Assembly: GCA_023374025.1 (NCBI GenBank)
Contig: SIJG01000147.1
Location: 237,687 to 301,686, forward strand
Length of the DNA stretch: 64,000 bases
Direction: 5' to 3'
Source: Heterodera schachtii
Taxonomy: Eukaryota > Nematoda > Chromadorea > Rhabditida > Heteroderidae
Shown: one piece after another, positions 14,249 through 44,386 of the stretch
Layout: each line of letters starts with the position of its first letter
Position numbering within the stretch: position 1 is the stretch's first letter
Program-made: the position numbers and the translations under genes
Notes under the pieces: model-generated
Told to the model about the DNA's origin: nothing
Database searches by the model: none
Seen by the model: only the letters and a program-made list of their open reading frames with translations

Positions 14249-15423
14249 AGACCGGACAACTGGGGTCGGAGAGATCCCGAGTCGGGATCCCGACCGAATC
14301 CCGTTCCCGATCAATCTCCCGATCCCGATCAATCCCGAAGATTTTTTTCGGGATCCCGCTGAATTATCGGGATTTGCAAAAACTCAATTTTTTTTATGTT
14401 TTGTGTCAAGTTTTGTTCAAATGCTTATCTAATATTTATAATTGATCAATTCCATTGAAGAAAAACAGGAATGGGAATTATATCATGTTTTTCGAAAATT
14501 TTCAAAATTCGAATAGCATGCCTAAAAATCAGATTTTAGGACCAAAAATTAGAACATTTAAAAACATAGCTTATAATTTTTTTTTAATTTAATTAATATA
14601 AATTTTTTTATTTTCGCCTTCTATGATCAGTTTTAACAATTTGAGAAAATTAGCAAATCGTTAAGTGCATCGGAACCAAAAAATTAGATTTTTATGATTT
14701 TTTTGCTGAGATTTTTTCAAAAACTTTAGGGGAATAAGGTGGAGGCCGGCGGTGCCGATAGGCGCCGCCGGAAAATTTTGTAATTTTGGATGCGATTTGT
14801 TAACAGATTTTGTCCAAAAAAACCAAAATTTTTAACGATTTTGAACAAAATTTTCAGGAAATAAGGATTTCTAGAGTCCGGCGCTGCAGTATGCACCGAA
14901 GGAAAAATACGTAGACAACAATTTCTAATCCAATTTTTGCATAAAATTCTTAGATATTGTTGTGTCATAATATTCCCTACAAGATTTAGAATAATATTTT
15001 AGGAATTAAAATTTTTTGATTATTCTTTTTTGAAAAAAATAAAAGTCACAAAATGGCCAACTTTTACGTTAAAATTTGAAAATTTTATTGTAATTTTGGA
15101 GACCTGTTGAAATTTTTTTGGCATTTTTACGGATTTTTTAAGAAAAATTAGCAAATGACAATATTTTTTAATTTAAAATACAAGATATTAATTAAAAAAT
15201 GGAGATTTTTTTAAAAATTATCATGACTTCAATCCCGCGGGATCTCGCGGGATTGGTAAAATGGTCGGGAGGGATCCCGGTTCGGGATCCCGATGAAATC
15301 CCGATCCTGATCAATCCCGATGAATTTAAAAAATCGTTCGGGACGGATCCCGAGGTCGGGATCCCGAATTTAATCCCGCGGGATCCCGAAGAAATCTCGC
15401 GGGATCCTGATCCCGTCCGGTCT
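14249..15423. mobile_element. GGGATCCCGAT word-array element with short inverted termini
   Basis: The ends are inverted: AGACCGGAC (14249-14257) and GTCCGGTCT (15415-15423). The similarity extends imperfectly outward (AAAGTAAAGACC against the complement of GGTCTCTAATTT). Next to each end is an array of GGGATCCCGAT/GATCAATCCCG words (14262-14362 and 15227-15420), largely self-complementary. The AT-rich middle holds a strong hairpin (14746-14771). No transposase frame exists; the 99-100-codon frames at 14143 and 15199 merely translate the words as repeated RDP/IPRD. Interpreted as a non-autonomous element of unknown family. Confidence 0.65.
14746..14771. repeat. dispersed hairpin motif GGTGCCGATAGGCGCC
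   Basis: CCGGCGGTGCC, GATA, GGCGCCGCCGG forms an 11-bp stem with one G-T style mismatch and a four-base loop. The same core recurs at 30361-30376 and 32120-32135 (reverse strand) and in weaker form at 34930-34950, 58137-58150 and 58878-58898. Flanking words TTGTTAACA and TTTTGTCCAAAAAA at 14797-14820 also recur beside the 30.36-kb copy, so a longer repeat unit is shared and not the motif alone. Confidence 0.75.
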
Positions 15424-18786: not shown

Positions 18787-19252
18787 TTGTTGTGCATGAA
18801 ACTACCTAATAAGATTTAAAATATTATTTGAGGAATTAAAAAAATAATTTTTGATAATTCTTTTTTTAAAGGAATAAAAGTCACAAAATGGCCAACCTTT
18901 GCGTCAAATTTTGAAAATTTTCACAAGTATTTTGAAACTCATAAAAATTTTTTGGGATTTTAAGGGATTTTTAAAGAAAAATAAGCAAATTTTTAATTTA
19001 AAATTCAAGGTCTTAATTTAAAAAAATGAGATTTTTCCAAAAATTATCGTGACTTCAATCCCGCGGGATCTCGCGGGATTGGTAAAATGGTCGGGAGGGA
19101 TCCCGATTCGGGATCCCGATGAAATCCCGATCAATCCGGATGCATTTAAAAAATCGTTCGCGACGGATCCCGAGGTCGGGATCCCGAATTTAATCCCGCG
19201 GGATCCCGAAGAAATCCCGCGGGATCCCGATCCCGTCCGGTCTCTAATTCTT
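18787..19252 (+). repeat. dispersed repeat, copy 2 (5'-truncated word-array element)
   Basis: Same-orientation copy of 14957-15430. It contains the AGGAATTAAAA / AAAGTCACAAAATGGCCAAC segment and a nearly identical GGGATCCCGAT array (19052-19247), ending at CCGGTCTCTAATTC. The left array and the GGTGCCGATAGGCGCC hairpin are absent, so this copy is truncated. The 71-codon frame at 19049 is the word array in translation and not a protein gene. Confidence 0.85.
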
Positions 19253-35131: not shown

Positions 35132-36250
35132 TTTTTTTGTTTCTTAGGGGAATATTTAGTGAAAATTTATCCAATTTTTAGGGCTATATTTTTCTGAAAT
35201 TTTTGGAAAGAATTTTGTTTTTCGTGCTTCTCTCACCAAGTACTATCCTCAAAAAAAAGGTTATAACCTAAAATCAGGTCTCTAATTATCACTTATTTTT
35301 ATAAACATAGATCAATTTATAATTTTTTTTCAAATACATTCATTGAAATCCAAAATATTTTGATGCTATTTTATGTCGGCCAAAAGGTGATTTTGATAAA
35401 TGTTCAGTTGGGAGCCCAGATAGATGGTCTACATATTAATTTAAATTTATCTTCATTTTTTTATTCGAGTAATATTTAATAAGATACTTTATAAATTATT
35501 TGTGAAAATTTATGAAATAAATTTTTCTTTCATTTCTTTATATTTATACTTTAATCATATTTCATGGTGTGGAATAAATTCTTTCTGCCCTCGCCACTTG
35601 CACCTTGATTTTTCATTTCTGATTGGAAATTTTTCCATCACTTTAATACAAATTTTTATTTATATTAATGATTAAATTATTTGCAAATTCTTTAGTTCTT
35701 ACAATTCAATAAAAATTCAAATATAAAAATGTCTTTATTATTTGATCATTTGTTTTAATTTTTTTGTTATATTCTTAATTTTGATGTTATTATTAGTTAA
35801 ATATTTTATTAAAATGTTTTGTTTTAAGATATAAATATTTGTTAATTAATTGTATCTATTCTCGTTTCTTTTTAGTGATTCAATATTACCTATACAAATT
35901 AGTATTTAAATTTCATTCAAAAATTAATAAGATTGTGAGTGCAATTTCGATTTTTTTTTTAAATTTCATTAACAGACAAAAAACCAAATAAATTGAATGA
36001 CTAAGGCGATATTTTGAAATATGTAATAAAATCTGTGCTAAAAAAATGTGCTAAAAACTTGTCGCCAAAAGCGACACAAATTTCTTTGAAATTTCTTTTA
36101 TTTTCCGTTCATTTTCATCGATCAATTTCCATTCGCTCGCTCCTCAATTATGAGTCATCTTTTCTCTTCTTCCTATTTTTATGGATTTTTGTCCATCTGT
36201 TTGTGCACATTTTTCACGTGCCTGGCCCCGCCCCCCATTGATTTGTGAGG

Positions 36251-36260
36251 GTATAAAAGC
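36251..36260 (+). promoter_or_regulatory. LTR TATA box
   Basis: GTATAAAAGC in the 5' LTR, with GC-rich sequence downstream. It stands about 175 bases before the AATAAA signal and is the likely start region of the retrotransposon transcript. An identical site in the 3' LTR begins at 43881. Confidence 0.6.
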
Positions 36261-36425
36261 CCGGCCCATTCTCCATTTTCCTCACTTCTTGCTTCTTCTT
36301 GCATATTTTTACAAGACCATTTCTTGTGAGATTTCTGCAAGCCACTTCGGCTTGTATCAGCATTAAGTCAGCCGGACAGTTTTCTGTCCAAGCAATTTGC
36401 ATTAAATTGTAATTGTGTTTATTTG

Positions 36426-36431
36426 AATAAA
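36426..36431 (+). promoter_or_regulatory. LTR polyadenylation signal AATAAA
   Basis: AATAAA downstream of the TATA box within the 5' LTR; the active copy for element transcripts would be its twin at 44056-44061 in the 3' LTR. Confidence 0.55.
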
Positions 36432-36753
36432 GATTAAGGAAAGGTCTTAGTCTTTTCTCTGTCTGTAAAAGGGACATTCAGGAGCCCTTTAATACAGACC
36501 ATTAAGCCGTTGACCCCCGTCGGGTCAGAAAAGGCTTACCAAAGGAAAGGAGAAGCATTTTCCTCCTTTCAATTTGTCCCTTCAGTAAAGGAGAGGAATT
36601 TCCTCCCCTTTAATTTGTCCCTTTGGACACTCAGTGAATTTCTGTCTTTTGGACAGAAGTTCTCTCTGCTTAAAAGACTCTCCCCTTCTGCCGGGAGAGT
36701 CAGCTTCCCCTTCTGCCGGGAAGTGCAATTTTTGTGGCTTTTTGCCCACAAAA

Positions 36754-36770
36754 TTGGAGCCCCGTAGGGG
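36754..36770 (+). promoter_or_regulatory. tRNA primer-binding site
   Basis: TTGGAGCCCCGTAGGGG begins three bases past the LTR end. Its TGG is complementary to the CCA tail of a tRNA primer, and the remainder should pair with that tRNA's acceptor and T stem. I could not assign the tRNA. The CCCC/GGGG inside can itself form a small hairpin. Confidence 0.65.
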
Positions 36771-36889
36771 TCGGCTTCCAGTCGTAAGCCTACCCTCCAA
36801 CCAAACGCCAATCCAAAGCGCAGCCGTAGCGCTTGGATCAAACGCACAACCCAAAGGGGTTCATTGCGTTTTCATCAAGCGTAAGAGCA

Positions 36890-37513
36890 ATGAGTGAGCT
36901 CTTGCGCATTTCCATTGCACCAATGGTGGTGCGTCTCAAGATGTACATTGAGACAGCCCAAGAAAACTTGGGCAAAGAGCTGGCGGACCAAAGTGTCCGT
37001 GCAGATCTTCTTGCAGAGAGACAAAATCTCTGCAAAGCAATTTCTCTTTTGGAGAAATACAATGGAAAATGGGAAGCCATTTTCCTGAGAGTGAAAGGAC
37101 AAGCTCTTCAAGATGAAGAGCAGAATTACAGAGACTTCAAGCCTGAAGGAAAGGCTTTCATGCATTGGGTCGACCAAGCCCGAGGGCTTGTCGACACCAT
37201 TGAAGGGGCTTTAGGCCTCTCGGAGCTGGGGGATGCAATTCCCCAGCCGAATCAGCCAGCACAAGTTGTGCAACAAGCACCAGTGGTGCATCAGCGTCAT
37301 GACGTGACGCTTCCGCCAATAACATTGCCCAAATTCTCGGGGGAACCCCGAGAGTGGCCTTTGTTTTGGAAGCTCTTCGAGACTTCCGTTGAAAGTCTTC
37401 AAATCGAAGACTTCAAAAAGCACATTTATTTGCTGGGATGTCTCCCAGAGAAGTCAGTTGCTCGGAGAGCAATTGACTTGTACCCGCCGTCAGATAAAAC
37501 TACCCAAGGGTAG
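36890..37513 (+). CDS. gag: BEL/Pao Gag N-terminal part (frame interrupted)
   Basis: Start chosen at the ATG of MSELLRISIAP (36890); the frame is open from 36833, but the first 19 residues have no Gag character. About 207 residues. The N-terminal half is rich in charged helices, and the block LPPITLPKFSGEPREWPLFW (about residues 144-163) is the DUF1759 signature of BEL/Pao Gag. The frame stops at TAG 37511 just after PPSDK; the continuation (VEILKKRFGDEK) lies one frame over from 37513. The break falls at a run of four A (about 37494-37497). A lost A in the element or in the assembly explains it better than programmed shifting, as no good slippery heptamer is present. Confidence 0.85.
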   Translation: MSELLRISIAPMVVRLKMYIETAQENLGKELADQSVRADLLAERQNLCKAISLLEKYNGKWEAIFLRVKGQALQDEEQNYRDFKPEGKAFMHWVDQARGLVDTIEGALGLSELGDAIPQPNQPAQVVQQAPVVHQRHDVTLPPITLPKFSGEPREWPLFWKLFETSVESLQIEDFKKHIYLLGCLPEKSVARRAIDLYPPSDKTTQG

Positions 37514-39321
37514 TTGAGATTCTGAAAAAGCGGTTTGGGGATGAAAAAACGATGGTGGAGTCCCTCCAAGCGGAGTTACTCCACCTTCCCAAACCAGCTG
37601 AATCCGTTCAGTCTCTGAGACAATTCTCAGAGTCCATCGAACGGATTTGCCATCAGTTGTTGGACTATGGAGAGAATGAACAAAATAAGTTCATGGCCTC
37701 CACAATTAAGTCCAAACTGCCCTATCACCTTCTCACCCAAGTGGTGGAGAAGGAAATGAGGGCAGGAGGAGCCTTCAACTGCACAGAGCTCCGAAGAGCT
37801 ATCACTTCAATCGTTGAAGTGAAAGAGGAAGTACAGAGATGTACTCAGGTTTTCCGTGGAGAGGAAAAACCTCGCAATTTTCCCCCTCATTCAAATGGGG
37901 GAAGAGCCAACCAAGGGAGAGGAACACCGTTCCGTTTCTCCCAGCCGTTCAGACAAGAACGGCAGTGGAGGCCAATGGAACGAAACGAACCGGTGAGGAG
38001 GATGTCTCCTCAACCGAATCGTTCCTTCTCGGCCATCAACAAACCACAAACCCCTATCTCAGATAGGGGGTCAAATCGCTTATGCTCCCTTTGTGAAGCA
38101 AAGGGGCATGCACCGAGCAGGTGCACAAAATACACCACTCCGGGGGCGCGAAGGAAGCGCCTTACGGATCAAGACAGGTGTATTAATTGCCTCATGATGG
38201 GGCATAACTCCAAGAACTGCACCTCACCCCGCAGGTGCAGTCATTGTGGTGAAAGACACCACTTTATGGTGTGTTTTGGAGAAAAGTCTCGAGAGGAAAC
38301 CTCTCGGGGCCAACCAAATAATCAGATGAAAAGAGAAGCGAGAAAATCCTATCAAAGTCATCTGACTATGAGCAAGCACGCTCATAAAAGCGTGCCCAGT
38401 TCGGAATGCTCACCCATCACTACAAATGTGATGACAAGCGTGATGACGAAAAAGCCTCACGCATTTCTAATGACCAGAAAAATACTGGTCAGATCCAAAA
38501 ATAATCGAAGAGTTTGGATGGAAGTTCCATTCCTCTTCGACCCAGGAAGTCAAACTTCCTACGCCTCCGACCCTCTCATCGAGAGGCTCAAGCCACCGAA
38601 AGTGACTTCCGAAGAAATGGAAGTCTATGGCTTCGGAGGAGAAAGGAATGGACCAATGAGGTTCCATTCTCCCGTGTATTCCATCCAAATCAGAAGAACG
38701 GATGGAAAGTGGGAAGAAATCCTCCTAAATAGGACGGAGAGAATTTCCACGCCATTCAAAATGGCAGAATGGAATTCTGAGGAATTCCCACTCAAAGGAA
38801 TGGACATGGCCGACGCTATGAGTTTTTCTCGGGAAGAGCCCGAAATACTCATAGGTGCCAGACATTTCTGGCAATTCTTCCAAGGGAAGGAAGAAGTTTC
38901 TCCCGGGTTGTTTGTAATTCAAACAACCTTGGGCCCTTTGGTTAACGGAGAGTCCGACTTTGGGCCGGAACTTCCGAACCCAGGACTATCAATGATGGCC
39001 ATTGATGAGTCCAATCAAGGGCAAATGCCGACCATTAAAGAAATTGAATATTTCTTTAATTTGGAGTCTTTGGGAATCAAAGACGATCCAAATGAAAATG
39101 ACGACCAAACAGCAATGAGCCTTTTTAACAAGTCCATCCGTCGAGAAAAAGACGGAAGGTACTCTGTTAAGTGGCCATGGAAGGAGGAGGTGCCTGACCT
39201 CCCTTCCAATTACCGCATGGCCTTTTCAAGGCTAATGTCTACTTTTGGTAAGCTTCGTAATTCTCCAGACTTAATGGAGCAATACGATGCTACCATTAGA
39301 GACCAATTGCAAAAGGGATAA
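37513..39321 (+). CDS. gag-pol: BEL/Pao Gag C-terminus, zinc knuckles, protease and RT start
   Basis: Frame open from 37513, first ATG at 37552 (residue numbers from there). It continues the DUF1759 Gag region, then carries three cysteine/histidine knuckles at about residues 178-242: CSLCEAKGHAPSRC, CINCLMMGHNSKNC, and a third beginning CSHCGERHH. A retroviral-type aspartic protease follows, active-site block FLFDPGSQTSYAS with the catalytic Asp at residue 330 (DPGS in place of the usual D-S/T-G). The C-terminal ~90 residues (FFNLESLGIKDD, RYSVKWPWKEEVPDLPSNY) are the start of the BEL/Pao reverse transcriptase. It stops at TAA 39319-39321; RT continues in another frame from 39312. As with the first break, the shift lies at an A run (39311-39314). 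Confidence 0.88.
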   Translation, partial: VEILKKRFGDEKTMVESLQAELLHLPKPAESVQSLRQFSESIERICHQLLDYGENEQNKFMASTIKSKLPYHLLTQVVEKEMRAGGAFNCTELRRAITSIVEVKEEVQRCTQVFRGEEKPRNFPPHSNGGRANQGRGTPFRFSQPFRQERQWRPMERNEPVRRMSPQPNRSFSAINKPQTPISDRGSNRLCSLCEAKGHAPSRCTKYTTPGARRKRLTDQDRCINCLMMGHNSKNCTSPRRCSHCGERHHFMVCFGEKSREETSRGQPNNQMKREARKSYQSHLTMSKHAHKSVPSSECSPITTNVMTSVMTKKPHAFLMTRKILVRSKNNRRVWMEVPFLFDPGSQTSYASDPLIERLKPPKVTSEEMEVYGFGGERNGPMRFHSPVYSIQIRRTDGKWEEILLNRTERISTPFKMAEWNSEEFPLKGMDMADAMSFSREEPEILIGARHFWQFFQGKEEVSPGLFVIQTTLGPLVNGESDFGPELPNPGLSMMAIDESNQGQMPTIKEIEYFFNLESLGIKDDPNENDDQTAMSLFNKSIRREKDGRYSVKWPWKEEVPDLPSNYRMAFSRLMSTFGKLRNSPDLMEQYDATIRDQLQKG

Positions 39322-42300
39322 TCGAAGAGGCCAGGAAAGCCCCTGGCACTCTTGAGCATTATATCCCTCATCAGGGAGTTCTTGCCAAAGGCAAGAAATT
39401 GCGCGTCGTTTACGACGCCAGTGCTCACACCAGAGGAACAAACAGTCTCAATGCCTGTTTGTATAGAGGCCCGGTAATACTGCCGGATCTCATCGGAATG
39501 CTTATGCGATTCCGATGTCCAAGATTCCCTCTCCTCTCCGACATCCAAGCAGCATTTTTGCAAATTGCTTTGGAACCGGAGGATAGGGAAGTCACCAAAT
39601 TCCTCTGGGTGAAGGATGTCAGTAAACCACTGACACCAGCAAATCTGATCACTTACCGATTTTGCCGAGTGGCATTCGGAGTGATCAGTTCCCCCTTCAT
39701 TTTGGCTGCGACTTTGCAGCACCATTTGAAGGGATACCATTCTCCAGTGGCCAACGAATTGGCCCAATCATTGTATGTGGATAACACTCTTCTTGAGTGT
39801 GAATCCGCAGAAGAGGCTTTGCATAAATATGCAGAGTCTAAAGCCATCCTTAAAGAAGGACTCTTTAACTTAAGGGAATTTGTAACAAATTCCCCAGAGG
39901 TTATGAAGGCGATTCCTGAAGAGGATCGCCTGAACAAGCCCAAGGTAAAAGTCCTAGGGCTCATTTGGGACATAAACAAAGACGAAATTGTCTTTGAGTT
40001 CCCAACTCATGGCTTAGAAAAGCAGGCAACACGCCGTCTTGTTCTAAGCTTCTTAGCCTCATTATTTGACCCTCTTGGTCTAATGGGGCCGTGCATTCAG
40101 CCCTTAAAGCTTTTCTTCCAAACTCTTTGGGAAGAAAAGAAGGGCTGGGATGATGTTCTTTCTGAGAAAGAACAAACTCAATGGGCCTCCTTCCAAGAAA
40201 ATTGGAAGGATCAGACCCTCAAAATCCCACGCAGAGCAATGCTACAAGGGAATCCATCCCTTGAATTGCATAAGGAAATTCGTGCTCTCGATGAATGCGC
40301 CTTTCACTTTGTCCGAACAGCCGAGAATCCGGCGGACATTGCAACGAGAGGCACAAAACCAGGAGAACTTAAGGATAAGTCTCTCTGGTGGAATGGTCCT
40401 TCCTGGCTGAAGGAAGACCATGATCAATGGCCTAAAGAAATGGAATTTAAAATAAAAGATCCTCCAGAGAATCTGGAGGAAGGGTCTCTGGATAACGAAG
40501 AGAACGTTTTCTTCGTTAATACCAGAACAGAGGACCTGCTTGAGAGTCCTCTGATTGACCCTAAAAGATTCAGCTCATGGACAAAGATTGTCCAAGTGAC
40601 TCTTTTTGTGTTAAGATTTCTCCGTCTGAAACTGATTCAGAGGGGAAATCCTCACCAACTTTTCGAGAGTCATCGAAAAGAAATCGCCAAAGTGTCCGAA
40701 AAAGGACCATTTTCAGCAGAAGATGTTCTCCTAGCAGAGAACCTTCTGATCCGCATGGATCAGATGAAAAAGGCTGAAGATTTCCTCAGCTATCCTTCTC
40801 TTAAGGATAGTGAGGGGATTTTGAGGCTTAAAACCAGGTTGGGACGGTGTGACCAACCTTTTGGTTTTAGCCATCCAATCATTCTCGGAGGACAATCCTC
40901 CATCCGAGACTTGATCATCTTAAAATGCCACCAGAAAAGGCATCATTTTGGGGTGGAAGGCACCCTCACTGAGTTCTTACTCGGGTATTGGACACCTCGA
41001 GCAAGAACTAAGGTCAAAAAAGTACTGAAGGGATGCCTTCGGTGCAAAAGGATGCAGGCATACCAGTTTGCATTGCCAAAAATGCCTCCTTTACCTGACG
41101 AGCGAGTATGCCGTCAGGCTCCGTTCAAAGCAATCGGCATTGACTTTCTCGGTCCAACCGAAACACGGTTGGCCGGAGAGAAAGTCAAGGCATGGATACT
41201 CCTTATGACTTGCCTCGTAACACGAGCGGTTCATTTGGAGGCCATGCTTGACACAACTGCCGAGTCATTCCTCAATGTTCTCCGACGTTTCATAAGTCGG
41301 AGAGGAAAGCCCGACTTAATTTGGAGTGACAATGCCACTTCATTTAAATTGGCTCAAAAAACCATTGAGCATTTGACCACTCCAGTAGTTGATCAAAACA
41401 CGCAGGAATTTTTCGCACTTAATAAAATTAAGTGGCGATTCATTCCACAAATCAGCCCTTGGGCAGGTGGCGTTTATGAACGCCTTGTCCAATTGTGCAA
41501 AAATTGCTTCAAAAGGACTTTGGGGAGAAAAGTCCTCAGTTATGATCAACTCATAACTTTTGTGGCTGAAGTTGAAGCCACATTAAACCATCGCCCTATT
41601 ACTTCTGTGTCAGAAGGGATGGATGAATTCCTGCCCCTTCGTCCAGTGGACTTCCTTCAACCGGAAGTCCAAATTCACTGGGACACAAATGGTGAAGAAT
41701 TCGATCCATTGGATCGAAATCTTTCATCCCACCAAAAATTAGTTGCCCTTTTTCAGGCAACTAAAGAATCCCATGAATTTTTCTGGGAAATGTGGCAAAA
41801 AGAATACCTCCTCCTTCTGCGGGAGAGAGGTAAATGGGACCACAAGAGTCCCCGTCTTCAGGACAAAACAGAACCAAAGGAGGGAATGATCGTCCTCATT
41901 CATGAGGAGTTCACTCCCCGAAACCAATGGTCTTTGGGAAAGATCATTGAGCTTAATGGCCGACCAGGGGCCATTAGAAGCGTTCAGTTGGAACTCCCAA
42001 TTCATGGGATAAAATCAAAGAGGTATGGAACCATGCCTCGGAAAATCATTATCACCCGTCCGGTGAATAAGATTTTCCCATTGGAAGTAGGATTTGACAA
42101 TCCTACAGAAAATGAAGAAAAATTTGAAGAGAGTTCAAATGGAACTCCTCAAATACCAAATGAGGAGGAAAATTCTCATTTGGAGGCACCAATTGAAAAG
42201 GAGACTGAAATTCTTCAATTGGTTGATCAACCAATTGATCAAAACCGGCATGGCATGACTACTCGCAGCAAAGCAAAGATGGGGACAGTTTTGAACTGTC

Positions 42301-43634
42301 TTTCCATCATTTTTGCCATGCTTGCATTGGTTGGAGCTTATCCAACCAATCACTGCAACGAGTGCAAAATTCCAAAGTGTTTGGCTGGAAACACTTCTTT
42401 TGTTCTCAGGGGGACATTACACTATGTCCAACCCGAACAAATAGAAGATTACAGTCCAAATCACTCCGAAAGAGTGATAAACAGCCAATCCAGTTGGCCT
42501 AACTGGAATTTTGATTGGAAGGCGACCCTTTGGTCTTTGATTGGCCTCCAATCATCACTCATCTTCATAATGATTATTTGTGTAGGCATTGTTTGCCTAA
42601 CAATTTTCATTAAACTTTCTCCTTTCTATAGACTTTGGAAATTTATTTCCTGGTCTATAACGAGAAAGGGGTACGGTAATGTGCCTACAGTATTGGCACT
42701 ACTGTACTTGGCCGGGGGAGGATCCTTCGGATGTGGTGTTGAATCACGTCCTATCCTCTCGGCATTCAAAAAATTTTGTGAGTCATCCCTTGTTCTGGGG
42801 AATGATTCATCGCTTCCATTGGATGGTGGTATAAAAGGGTGGCTGATTTGCCACCCAACCACACTCTTCAAATCATCCTTCCACGGAATGCCTATTCCCA
42901 TAAGAGAAGGGCCGTACTTCTCGGCTAGCCGGGTTGTCATACCCGAAAATGCCGAGATTCTCAATGATCGCCTTTTTGGCGATGAGAATCCCCACCGGGA
43001 CCCATGGTTTGAGGAAGACTGGGAGCCAGTCTTACCATTGGTTCCCGATCATGTTGATCGCCGGCTACGCGATCCAAGATTGGAAGAGGAGGAAGAAGAG
43101 AGAGCGAATGACGCTCCTCTCCGGCGTGAACGTCGAGTTCATGGCCGGATTGAGCCTCTGAGTTCATGGATTGAGCGATACCATGAACCCAGATGGTACG
43201 AGTCAGCACTTGACCGCCGTGCGGTCGAAGAGCGACTTCGCGGAGAACTCCGCGAAGGGGCCACATTGTTTTCAGAGCATGTTGGTCCAATTCGTGACAT
43301 CCATTTTGATGGATTCACGTGTTATGGACCGGAAAATCTCTACCTCTTCCGAGGTAGAACGGTAATGGATCATTACCAACGAATGGGTCACGAAATAGAC
43401 CCATTCATGCCTTGCCTACAAGAATATGTAGGCTTCAGCCCTCACGAAGGAGGGATGCTCGTCGACCTCTACCCGGTCGATCTGGTCAATATCCGTACCC
43501 GAGTCGGAGTTGCCTGGAGAGCGCCTGCAATGGTGGAGGGACATCATCCTCCTCCACGTGACCACCAGCTACCAGATGGACGACTGGAGAATCGTCCTCC
43601 GCGGGTGGCTCGTCGACTTCCAAATCGACGATGA
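39312..43634 (+). CDS. pol: BEL/Pao Pol (RT, integrase) with envelope-like tail; RNase H missing
   Basis: Residues counted from the ATG at 39399. RT: RVVYDASAH just inside the start, LLSDIQAAFLQI, and YVDN at 126-129 in the catalytic YxDD position. After IPRRA (about 277-281) the frame jumps within some ten residues to a region ending FHFVRTAENPADIATRG (about 302-318). The RNase H-like part expected between them, usually well over 100 residues, is absent. Integrase: HHCC finger H511, H515, C546, C549; catalytic D582 (IGIDFLGP), D644 (WSDNATSF), E694 (GGVYERLV); then a DUF5641-like domain. From M961 there is a signal-like hydrophobic run to about 980, a short cysteine-bearing stretch, a strong membrane helix at about 1045-1072, and a charged arginine/proline-rich tail to 1411. 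The last part has envelope-like layout but is far too short for a full envelope. Confidence 0.88.
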   Translation, partial: KGIIEEARKAPGTLEHYIPHQGVLAKGKKLRVVYDASAHTRGTNSLNACLYRGPVILPDLIGMLMRFRCPRFPLLSDIQAAFLQIALEPEDREVTKFLWVKDVSKPLTPANLITYRFCRVAFGVISSPFILAATLQHHLKGYHSPVANELAQSLYVDNTLLECESAEEALHKYAESKAILKEGLFNLREFVTNSPEVMKAIPEEDRLNKPKVKVLGLIWDINKDEIVFEFPTHGLEKQATRRLVLSFLASLFDPLGLMGPCIQPLKLFFQTLWEEKKGWDDVLSEKEQTQWASFQENWKDQTLKIPRRAMLQGNPSLELHKEIRALDECAFHFVRTAENPADIATRGTKPGELKDKSLWWNGPSWLKEDHDQWPKEMEFKIKDPPENLEEGSLDNEENVFFVNTRTEDLLESPLIDPKRFSSWTKIVQVTLFVLRFLRLKLIQRGNPHQLFESHRKEIAKVSEKGPFSAEDVLLAENLLIRMDQMKKAEDFLSYPSLKDSEGILRLKTRLGRCDQPFGFSHPIILGGQSSIRDLIILKCHQKRHHFGVEGTLTEFLLGYWTPRARTKVKKVLKGCLRCKRMQAYQFALPKMPPLPDERVCRQAPFKAIGIDFLGPTETRLAGEKVKAWILLMTCLVTRAVHLEAMLDTTAESFLNVLRRFISRRGKPDLIWSDNATSFKLAQKTIEHLTTPVVDQNTQEFFALNKIKWRFIPQISPWAGGVYERLVQLCKNCFKRTLGRKVLSYDQLITFVAEVEATLNHRPITSVSEGMDEFLPLRPVDFLQPEVQIHWDTNGEEFDPLDRNLSSHQKLVALFQATKESHEFFWEMWQKEYLLLLRERGKWDHKSPRLQDKTEPKEGMIVLIHEEFTPRNQWSLGKIIELNGRPGAIRSVQLELPIHGIKSKRYGTMPRKIIITRPVNKIFPLEVGFDNPTENEEKFEESSNGTPQIPNEEENSHLEAPIEKETEILQLVDQPIDQNRHGMTTRSKAKMGTVLNCLSIIFAMLALVGAYPTNHCNECKIPKCLAGNTSFVLRGTLHYVQPEQIEDYSPNHSERVINSQSSWPNWNFDWKATLWSLIGLQSSLIFIMIICVGIVCLTIFIKLSPFYRLWKFISWSITRKGYGNVPTVLALLYLAGGGSFGCGVESRPILSAFKKFCESSLVLGNDSSLPLDGGIKGWLICHPTTLFKSSFHGMPIPIREGPYFSASRVVIPENAEILNDRLFGDENPHRDPWFEEDWEPVLPLVPDHVDRRLRDPRLEEEEEERANDAPLRRERRVHGRIEPLSSWIERYHEPRWYESALDRRAVEERLRGELREGATLFSEHVGPIRDIHFDGFTCYGPENLYLFRGRTVMDHYQRMGHEIDPFMPCLQEYVGFSPHEGGMLVDLYPVDLVNIRTRVGVAWRAPAMVEGHHPPPRDHQLPDGRLENRPPRVARRLPNRR

Positions 43635-43678
43635 AAAGAATTTTGGCGAAGGAACGGCAACAGATGTCGCCATCCTTG

Positions 43679-43690
43679 AGGCCCGGAGAA
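43679..43690 (+). promoter_or_regulatory. weak polypurine tract
   Basis: The purine-rich sequence just before the 3' LTR (GAGGCCCGGAGA with a final A) is the only candidate plus-strand primer site. It is interrupted by CCC, so as a polypurine tract it is poor. Confidence 0.35.
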
Positions 43691-44381
43691 TGTCGCCAAA
43701 AGCGACACAAATTTCTTTGAAATTTCTTTTATTTTCCGTTCATTTTCATCGATCAATTTCCATTCGCTCGCTCCTCAATTATGAGTCATCTTTTCTCTTC
43801 TTCCTATTTTTATGGATTTTGTCCATCTGTTTGTGCACATTTTTCACGTGCCTGGCCCCGCCCCCCATTGATTTGTGAGGGTATAAAAGCCCGGCCCATT
43901 CTCCATTTTCCTCACTTCTTGCTTCTTCTTGCATATTTTTACAAGACCATTTCTTGTGAGATTTCTGCAAGCCACTTCGGCTTGTATCAGCATTAAGTCA
44001 GCCGGACAGTTTTCTGTCCAAGCAATTTGCATTAAATTGTAATTGTGTTTATTTGAATAAAGATTAAGGAAAGGTCTTAGTCTTTTCTCTGTCTGTAAAA
44101 GGGACATTCAGGAGCCCTTTAATACAGACCATTAAGCCGTTGACCCCCGTCGGGTCAGAAAAGGCTTACCAAAGGAAAGGAGAAGCATTTTCCTCCTTTC
44201 AATTTGTCCCTTCAGTAAAGGAGAGGAATTTCCTCCCCTTTAATTTGTCCCTTTGGACACTCAGTGAATTTCTGTCTTTTGGACAGAAGTTCTCTCTGCT
44301 TAAAAGACTCTCCCCTTCTGCCGGGAGAGTCAGCTTCCCCTTCTGCCGGGAAGTGCAAATTTTTGTGGCTTTTTGCCCACA
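43691..44381 (+). repeat. 3' LTR
   Basis: 691 bp, TGTCGCC to GCCCACA. Compared by eye with the 5' LTR it has one T fewer in the ATGGATTTT run (about 43811-43820) and one A more in GCAAATTTTT (44355-44365); no substitution was seen. TATA box at 43881 and AATAAA at 44056-44061. It is followed by AAACT, the target duplication. Confidence 0.95.
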
Positions 44382-44386
44382 AAACT

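What the first reader, a model, noticed from the sequence alone, without database searches (positions are those of the whole stretch)
36060..44381. A retrotransposon tiled end to end with short perfect stem-loops, coding sequence included
Reading through the BEL/Pao element, perfect inverted repeats with 5-10-base arms and short loops follow one another every few tens of bases, in the LTRs, the leader and all coding domains. Examples with at least 8-bp arms: ACTCTCCC/GGGAGAGT 36677-36700; GTTCTTTCT/AGAAAGAAC 40155-40173; CCTTCCAA/TTGGAAGG 40189-40209; CCTCCAGA/TCTGGAGG 40461-40479; TCTGATCC/GGATCAGA 40745-40764; GGACTTCC/GGAAGTCC 41648-41670; TTCGATCC/GGATCGAA 41700-41718; CTTCGCGGAG/CTCCGCGAAG 43236-43257. 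Shorter ones include GCGTCG/CGACGC 39403-39418, GACCGC/GCGGTC 43212-43226 and CTACCTC/GAGGTAG 43340-43357. For loops of 3-12 bases, chance gives roughly one or two perfect 8-bp stems in 8.3 kb of random sequence; I read about a dozen without exhaustive search, and well over fifty stems of 5 bp or more. Codon choice must therefore be bent to make hairpins. The Merlin fragments and AT-rich flanks do not show this. Possible explanations are selection for a highly folded genomic RNA (packaging, protection from silencing or editing), or a mutational process such as template switching in reverse transcription that perfects near-palindromes. I know of no described retroelement family defined by this property.
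Basis: partly seen in the sequence, partly recalled or inferred. Interest (0 to 1): 0.88.

Follow-up and report, generated by a model that had tools for sequence, protein, structure and literature searches.

The report
Retrovirus-like element tiled with RNA hairpins
A virus-like jumping gene of a plant-parasitic nematode, and its two closest sister families in the same genome, are written almost end to end in short perfect hairpins that appear to be kept by selection for a tightly folded RNA, a state known from some RNA viruses but stronger here.

Summary
Element 36060-44381 holds 51 perfect stems with arms of at least 8 bp (loops 3-15) against 2.3 in dinucleotide shuffles; codon-preserving shuffles are rejected in all three open frames. 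Folding energy exceeds shuffles by 41-50% in families A and B and 39-42% in a piece of family C (350-nt fragments); [quoted passage not shown] The element is a nematode belpaovirus. Families A, B and C form one supported clade; other BEL/Pao loci, Gypsy-type and LINE-type loci and host exons lack the excess or show it weakly. Individual stems turn over while density stays. Variants shared between copies avoid stem arms (rate ratios 0.31, 0.55) more than private ones (0.76, 0.86). Pooled G-U tolerance and stronger sense-strand folding point to RNA, though substitutions do not favour G-U. Template switching left no trace that I could find. Best reading: selection for foldedness of the sense RNA, like GORS, in an LTR retroelement. 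The benefit is inferred.

The parts
36055..36059 (.). 5-bp target-site duplication AAACT (left copy; right copy 44382-44386)
36060..36750 (+). 5' LTR, TG...CA ends, tiled with hairpins
   Evidence: 99.7% identical to 43691-44381, no mismatch, two gaps; stems >=6 bp in 36060-36832 15 vs 2.6 expected for loops 3-15
36833..37513 (+). gag, first open piece (start of DUF1759)
   Evidence: PF03564 match below its cut-off; 19 stems >=6 bp vs 1.9 in codon shuffles
37552..39321 (+). gag end with zinc knuckles, protease region, start of RT (second open piece)
   Evidence: assigned from position and cysteine motifs in the translation, motif reading recalled; no Pfam match; 42 stems >=6 bp vs 6.7
39399..43634 (+). 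pol (RT, A17 region, integrase) and remnant of env plus C-terminal region (third open piece)
   Evidence: PF05380, PF17921, PF18701 over cut-off, PF00078 just below it; 87 stems >=6 bp vs 17.0
39774..39785 (+). RT motif YVDN, hallmark of nematode belpaoviruses
   Evidence: the hallmark is described in PMC9094657
40271..40272 (.). 305-bp gap of this copy in the RNase H region relative to other copies
42372..42373 (.). gap of about 1.76 kb in env relative to L009; also absent from L011, L012, L013, L014
   Evidence: the corresponding stretch of L024 encodes a phlebovirus-like glycoprotein
43691..44381 (+). 3' LTR
36676..36701 (+). hairpin, 9-bp arms
37011..37035 (+). hairpin, 9-bp arms
37064..37085 (+). 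hairpin, 9-bp arms
37802..37822 (+). hairpin, 9-bp arms
38216..38241 (+). hairpin, 9-bp arms
38906..38928 (+). hairpin, 9-bp arms
39034..39060 (+). hairpin, 11-bp arms
39491..39517 (+). hairpin, 9-bp arms
39874..39894 (+). hairpin, 9-bp arms
40110..40139 (+). hairpin, 10-bp arms
40154..40174 (+). hairpin, 9-bp arms
40188..40210 (+). hairpin, 9-bp arms
40460..40480 (+). hairpin, 9-bp arms
40493..40518 (+). hairpin, 9-bp arms
41647..41671 (+). hairpin, 9-bp arms
41739..41764 (+). hairpin, 9-bp arms
42156..42183 (+). hairpin, 9-bp arms
42215..42238 (+). hairpin, 10-bp arms
42326..42350 (+). hairpin, 10-bp arms
43236..43257 (+). hairpin, 9-bp arms with a 4-base loop (10 with a 2-base loop)
43381..43406 (+). 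hairpin, 9-bp arms
44306..44331 (+). hairpin, 9-bp arms (LTR copy of 36676-36701)

Best explanation
The element is an env-type nematode belpaovirus (BEL/Pao LTR retroelement) whose lineage has been under selection to keep its sense RNA (genomic RNA and mRNA) folded into a continuous string of small hairpins, mostly up to 9 bp with loops of 3-10. Shown here: the hairpins, their excess over codon-preserving nulls, their limitation at full strength to one clade among the loci tested, the turnover of individual stems with density kept, the avoidance of stem arms by variants shared between copies, compensatory changes in internal pairs, and, in pooled counts, tolerance of G-U on the sense strand. 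Inferred: that the RNA folds this way in the cell and that foldedness itself, not particular hairpins, is what is selected, as in GORS of positive-strand RNA viruses. Inferred more weakly (about 0.35): that the benefit is to hide or protect the RNA from host RNA recognition such as small-RNA silencing; packaging or compaction of the genomic RNA is the next candidate.
For: Stem excess in LTR plus leader and in all three open frames against dinucleotide and codon nulls. Energy excess on 350-nt fragments, sense strand, codon nulls: window ORF3 45.5%, A copy L009 50.0%, B copy L024 45.6%, C copy L043 41.7%; outgroups L028 5.1%, L032 0.7%. The sense strand exceeds the antisense in 4 of 4 (45.5 vs 38.0, 50.0 vs 42.9, 45.6 vs 33.3, 41.7 vs 24.9). 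Stems of >=7 bp holding exactly one G-U, pooled over L009, L024 and L043: 69 vs 23.1 expected, against 33/21.1, 35/19.4 and 28/16.8 for A-C, A-G and C-T; 38.7 would be expected if G-U were treated like a mismatch, Poisson p 7e-6. Shared variants avoid stem arms: pooled rate ratio 0.31 (A) and 0.55 (B) against 0.76 and 0.86 for private variants; slid controls near 1; with the window as reference 11/127 shared vs 47/190 private (stem/non-stem), p 0.0018; with L024 79/706 vs 102/509, p 2.9e-4. Stems stay intact more often than control stretches: 0.71 vs 0.44 at 6.6% divergence, 0.38 vs 0.17 at 14.8%. Internal double changes restore pairing 7:1, 8:1, 8:1 and 7:1 in four overlapping B comparisons against 40-43% in controls, p 0.006-0.024. 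A, B and C form one clade (100/99). Host exons: 3 stems >=6 bp vs 6.6 expected in 3426 nt.
Against: Among substitutions that hit stems, G-U outcomes are not favoured over A-C (376 vs 383 between A and B; within families 12 of 14 tests not significant, one favouring G-U at p 0.031 and one the reverse at p 0.043). In the window's own ORF3, stems of >=7 bp with one G-U (11 vs 6.7) are no more enriched than with one A-C (12 vs 7.2), and in L043 alone G-U (6/1.9) is like C-T (4/1.2). Pairs flanking perfect stems show no G-U excess (30 vs 34). If end pairs are included the compensation test is significant in 2 of 4 comparisons; closer pairs have too few changes to tell. Two of 11 B references (L017, L018) show no extra avoidance by shared variants, and Fisher p is under 0.05 in 7 of 9 A and 6 of 11 B references, which are not independent. 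Third positions alone give 0.64 vs 0.32 in A with p 0.14 for the window as reference. Direct repeats are also in mild excess. Predicted accessibility of 7-nt sites falls only 19-26%, modest for a shield. There is no transcript, probing or small-RNA data, and only one genome could be read.
Confidence: 0.72

Rival explanations
1. Mutational drive: the lineage's reverse transcriptase often switches to its own nascent strand and perfects near-palindromes; hairpins are a by-product that coding selection merely tolerates.
For: Template switching creates perfect hairpins and compensatory changes in other systems (PMC8794818, abstract and first paragraphs; PMC8604942, abstract). It would be tied to one RT lineage, as seen, and correction during reverse transcription could also remove stem-breaking variants before they are shared.
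Against: Arms with two or more differences are rarer than in controls in 14 of 14 comparisons (for example 4.6% vs 10.6% at 6.6% divergence); 1 of 121 clusters of three or more changes has a nearby reverse complement, though the test asked for the whole cluster plus three bases on each side. Differences between A and B do not fall on one arm more than in controls. Pooled G-U tolerance and stronger sense-strand folding are not expected from a DNA copying process.
Confidence: 0.12
2. Dispersed packaging or Gag-binding sites: each hairpin is a low-affinity site for Gag that compacts and packages the genomic RNA, as proposed for some small RNA viruses and phages (recalled, no call).
For: Spread over the whole RNA, local, tolerant of turnover, stems mostly up to 9 bp with short loops.
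Against: No common loop or closing-pair motif was seen by eye in the loops listed, only A enrichment (0.333 in loops vs 0.281 in the rest); no motif statistic was run. Close relatives L028, L032 and L041 do without.
Confidence: 0.13
3. DNA-level role: hairpins of single-stranded cDNA or cruciforms in the provirus, for example in reverse transcription or integration.
For: Perfect Watson-Crick arms dominate and are the same on both strands; substitutions do not favour G-U over A-C.
Against: Sense-strand bias of folding energy and pooled G-U tolerance.
Confidence: 0.02
4. Composition or codon artefact.
For: Long G+C-richer stretch in an AT-rich window.
Against: Dinucleotide and codon-preserving shuffles, other BEL/Pao loci and host exons of similar composition.
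Confidence: 0.01

Closest known systems
[quoted passage not shown]
   Same: Hundreds of consecutive local stem-loops over the genome including coding sequence; energy excess over shuffled controls; individual pairings poorly conserved between relatives; paired sites change less (PMC7642675, passages).
   Different: Host entity is an LTR retroelement, not an RNA virus; excess of 39-50% on 350-nt fragments against a genome mean of 15% for SARS-CoV-2 and 23.4% for the highest vertebrate RNA virus reported there, though that paper also gives a local peak above 50% in ORF3a. Here built largely from short perfect stems. My method is close to but not the same as theirs (non-overlapping fragments, 8 shuffles).
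Atlas virus and other nematode belpaoviruses (Tas, Cer13)
   Same: Gag-Pol-Env, YVDN in RT, phlebovirus-like Gn/Gc envelope (PMC9094657, passages; here).
   Different: The term RNA structure does not occur in that paper's main text; their folding was not measured here.
Ty1 genomic RNA structure
   Same: An LTR retrotransposon RNA with mapped structure, mostly short-range pairs shared between compartments (PMC9503155, passages).
   Different: Eleven well-structured regions covering about 19% of the RNA in the nucleus; no hairpin tiling in the passages seen.
Template-switch-generated hairpins
   Same: Perfect reverse-complement arms (abstracts).
   Different: No arm-conversion footprint found here.

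Membership tests
BEL/Pao LTR retroelement (Belpaoviridae) | LTRs with TG..CA ends, target-site duplication, Pao-type A17 domain, RT and integrase in order | tested here: met
   LTRs 36060-36750 / 43691-44381, TSD AAACT; PF05380, PF17921, PF18701 over cut-off, PF00078 just below
Nematode belpaovirus group (Tas/Atlas/Cer13-like) | YVDN instead of YxDD in RT | tested here: met
   YVDN at 39774-39785; also in family C, L065
Nematode belpaovirus group (Tas/Atlas/Cer13-like) | phlebovirus-like envelope | tested here: met
   PF07245 E 4e-68 in sister copy L024, with PF07243 and PF19019 below their cut-offs; most of this region is missing from the window copy itself
GORS | energy excess over order-shuffled controls through the genome, coding sequence included | tested here: met
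   6-14 stems per 500 nt along the element
GORS | pairings not conserved between relatives while overall structure is | tested here: met
   10-11 of 54-55 window stems >=7 bp intact in family B, 9 of 35-39 the other way; both families show the excess
GORS | paired sites vary less | tested here: met
GORS | structure present in the RNA in cells, with an effect on host recognition | not testable with these tools
   needs probing and cell experiments
GORS | RNA virus of persistent infection | tested here: not met
   it is an LTR retroelement, so it is not filed as a member; the comparison is that it works like GORS
Template-switch (quasi-palindrome) hairpins | multi-base conversion of one arm to the complement of the other | tested here: not met

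The most novel reading that the evidence does not exclude
One clade of envelope-bearing nematode retroviruses has evolved a hairpin-tiled coding RNA stronger than any GORS genome whose value I have seen: a retroviral counterpart of GORS about twice as strong, kept for foldedness and not for any given structure, with stems held below about 10 bp, as a shield of its genomic RNA against the nematode's small-RNA silencing.
Probability: 0.28. Interest if true: 0.9.

Novelty: new variant of a known kind. Interest (0 to 1): 0.74.

Why it matters
Whether genome-wide RNA folding is selected for its own sake, and why, is an open question in RNA virology. This case offers three sister families with the trait beside relatives without it in one genome, twenty copies of two families whose private and shared variants help to separate neutral decay from transmission, and a host phylum whose RNA silencing is well studied (recalled). 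It would widen the phenomenon from RNA viruses to LTR retroelements and give a natural with/without comparison.

Tried and rejected
Chance and composition: rejected by mono-, di- and codon-preserving nulls. A host-wide process: rejected, since the host exons and most other loci tested lack the full excess. It must be told that 11 of 25 other BEL/Pao loci have a nominal excess of >=6-bp stems (ratio 1.8-4.2, p 0.005-0.045 by 200 codon shuffles), five of them in a second lineage (L033, L045, L046, L050, L052), and so has one of two PF17917 loci taken as Gypsy-type (L055, 2.7-fold, p 0.045), so a mild form is wider spread. The labels Gypsy-type and LINE-type rest on the Pfam family used (PF17917, PF14529) and recall. 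In the host control three of eight stretches look antisense; Watson-Crick stem counts do not depend on strand. An earlier version read three of four exons on the wrong strand and was replaced. The first shared/private count called stems by majority and could be biased; one search replaced it with stems called in one copy, dropping copies that covered under 90% of a piece, sites with fewer than four other copies, and variants for which the reference held the rarer state. One-arm clustering between A and B showed no signal but is weak at about 73% identity, so closer pairs were used. Two scans of IMG/VR found no relative. Rfam at gathering thresholds and a tRNA scan of the window found nothing. 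Regular spacing of the hairpins: not seen (58.7 +/- 43.0). Codon register of stems: 71, 65 and 85 against 11.5, 14.6 and 12.4 in shuffles, no clear preference.

Full report
What was claimed and what is there. All 11 listed examples are at the stated places and perfect. Counting all maximal perfect inverted repeats with loops of 3-15 bases gives 286, 181, 104, 51, 22 and 4 with arms of at least 5, 6, 7, 8, 9 and 10 bp; dinucleotide shuffles give 111, 30, 8.1, 2.3, 0.6 and 0.2, and 0 of 200 shuffles reach any of the observed values. Shuffling synonymous codons, which keeps protein and codon use, is rejected in each open frame: arms >=8 bp 5 vs 0.1 (36833-37513), 7 vs 0.7 (37552-39321), 33 vs 1.7 (39399-43634), 0 of 200 each. 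LTR plus leader: 15 vs 2.6 for arms >=6. The excess is strongest at loops 3-10, is 2-6 fold at loops 11-30, and near 1 beyond about 40. Direct repeats are in milder excess, 14 vs 5.3, against 58 vs 3.4 for inverted ones over a like distance. Per 500 nt there are 6-14 stems of >=6 bp (loops 3-10) along the element. A non-overlapping set of 142 stems covers 2812 of 8322 bases; G+C is 0.49 in arms, 0.46 in the rest and 0.40 in loops.

What carries it. The element has 691-bp LTRs 99.7% identical, TG..CA ends and a 5-bp target duplication, hence a recent insertion. It encodes gag (DUF1759, below cut-off in this copy), RT with YVDN, the Pao A17 region, integrase and DUF5641. This copy is broken: three separate open pieces, a 305-bp gap in the RNase H region, and a gap of about 1.76 kb in env that L011-L014 also have (5 of the 9 copies examined, window included). 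In sister copy L024 the corresponding region matches Phlebovirus_G2 at 4e-68, with G1 and G2-C matches below cut-off. YVDN plus phlebovirus-like env are the marks of nematode belpaoviruses (PMC9094657, passages). Among the 120 of 358 protein matches that were listed, the best is from Heterodera trifolii (97% over 76% of the region), then Globodera rostochiensis (67%), Heterodera schachtii (58%), and Meloidogyne at 41-49%, so the host is most likely a cyst nematode of or near Heterodera; the species is not settled.

How wide it is. From the 52 matches, 19 loci were fetched (fragments and near neighbours left out). All eight other copies of the family (A; L009-L016) and all eleven of a sister family at about 73% identity (B; L017-L027) show it: arms >=8 bp 24-58 observed against 1.9-8.2 expected, the weakest being L016 and L027, which hold only parts of the element. 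Of 26 further BEL/Pao loci in the same genome (L028-L053, some near-identical to each other; taken from the 135 matches), one, L043 (family C), has it in full (29 vs 4.2 for arms >=6), confirmed on a second 3-kb stretch (arms >=8, loops 3-15: 10 vs 0.7). The other 25 have ratios of 0.3-4.2; 11 of them have p <= 0.045 by codon shuffles, with energy ratios of 0.97-1.18 over all 25. Two loci taken as Gypsy-type and one as LINE-type: ratios 1.3, 2.7, 1.2. Host HSP70 and myosin stretches: 3 stems >=6 bp vs 6.6 expected in 3426 nt, energy ratio 1.05. A maximum-likelihood tree of 29 sequences joins A, B and C with 100/99 support; the next rows L028, L032 and L041, joined to them only weakly (83/84), lack the property. 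So the full trait has most simply one origin and has been kept since.

Selection or mutation. Stems turn over: 10-11 of 54-55 window stems of >=7 bp are intact in B, and 9 of 35-39 B stems in the window, while B shows the same kind of excess as A. At smaller distances they last longer than control stretches: intact 0.71 vs 0.44 at 6.6% divergence, 0.38 vs 0.17 at 14.8%. The cleanest test separates variants private to one copy (mostly acquired after insertion, by inference) from variants shared by several copies (passed on through replication), with stems called in a single reference copy and only variants not carried by it counted. Rate ratios stem/non-stem pooled over references: private 0.76 and shared 0.31 in A; private 0.86 and shared 0.55 in B; stems slid by 20, 35 and 50 bases give 1.02-1.17 and 0.93-1.39. 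Shared is below private in 9 of 9 A and 9 of 11 B references; Fisher p < 0.05 in 7 of 9 and 6 of 11, not independent. At third codon positions 0.64 vs 0.32 (window as reference p 0.14) and 0.89 vs 0.59 (L024 p 0.0052). Internal pairs changed on both sides are restored 7:1, 8:1, 8:1 and 7:1 in the four comparisons of L024 with L018 and L017, against 40-43% in controls (p 0.006-0.024); with end pairs included 7:5, 9:2, 8:6 and 9:1 (p 0.24, 0.011, 0.29, 0.006); closer pairs have too few. Between A and B 159 of 311 double changes restore pairing, against 37% in controls. Template switching would leave blocks of change on one arm; there is no excess of arms with several differences in 14 of 14 comparisons, and 1 of 121 clusters fits, a 10-base palindrome. 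A subtle form in which correction acts before fixation is not excluded.

RNA or DNA. Pooled over L009, L024 and L043, stems with one G-U pair are 69 vs 23.1 expected, with one A-C 33 vs 21.1, A-G 35 vs 19.4, C-T 28 vs 16.8; G-U exceeds what mismatches would predict (38.7), p 7e-6. Energy excess on 350-nt fragments is larger on the sense than the antisense strand in 4 of 4 sequences, and in L065 (1.36 vs 1.25 on 120-nt windows); in the window's first open frame the two strands are alike (1.53 vs 1.52). Against this, the window's own ORF3 shows no G-U preference at >=7 bp (11 vs 6.7 for G-U, 12 vs 7.2 for A-C), substitutions within stems do not favour G-U over A-C (376 vs 383), and pairs flanking perfect stems show no G-U excess (30 vs 34). 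I take the sense RNA as the likely target, not as proven.

What it resembles. GORS, as described in PMC7642675 (passages), is large-scale pairing created by several hundred consecutive stem-loops, poorly conserved in position, with genome values of 7-9% for HCV, 15% for SARS-CoV-2 and 23.4% at most, and local peaks above 50%. The figures here with dinucleotide shuffles are 43.4, 48.8, 41.0 and 39.0% against 4.3 and -1.1% for L028 and L032; the method is similar, not identical. GORS transcripts induce less RIG-I and PKR response in fibroblasts (PMC3950689, abstract). That nematodes silence transposons with small RNAs is recalled. Predicted accessibility of 7-nt sites drops from 0.091 to 0.067 and from 0.113 to 0.092, against 0.109 to 0.101 and 0.106 to 0.101 in outgroups, so a shield would have to work through kinetics, proteins or longer targets. 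Arm lengths fall steeply above 9 bp in some copies (9, 10, 11 bp: 17, 3, 1 in the window; 18, 3, 1 in L009; 11, 1, 4 in L024), less so in others (11, 6, 3 in L015; 9, 3, 2 in L018); this would fit avoidance of longer duplexes but could also come from coding constraint.

Print status. Searches for retrotransposons with GORS, Pao with RNA secondary structure, Belpaoviridae with RNA structure, hairpins with codon usage in LTR elements, endogenous retroviruses with GORS, and LTR retrotransposons with minimum folding energy listed no paper whose title or abstract start describes this; I judged by those listings and by passages of PMC9503155, PMC3118150, PMC11118728 and PMC9094657. The library is open-access only.

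Noticed in passing
window 15230-15390 and 19056-19225: A palindrome-rich repeat with units like TCGGGATCCCGA and ATCCCGCGGGAT occurs twice and adds to the stem excess outside the element.
   Followed up: no
   Followed up: no
window 42372; L011-L014: Five of nine copies of the family lack the same large part of env, so an env-reduced sublineage seems to have multiplied.
   Followed up: partly
L033, L045, L046, L050, L052: A second, distant BEL/Pao lineage shows a weaker stem excess (2.8-4.2 fold for arms >=6 bp), so the tendency may have arisen more than once.
   Followed up: partly
families A, B, C: Stem arms become much rarer above 9 bp in several copies, as if longer perfect duplexes were avoided.
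   Followed up: partly
G000:C103:220094, C4:2518398, C13:1398835: Very long uninterrupted open frames (4364, 3240 and 3518 aa) around BEL/Pao A17 domains in this genome.
   Followed up: no
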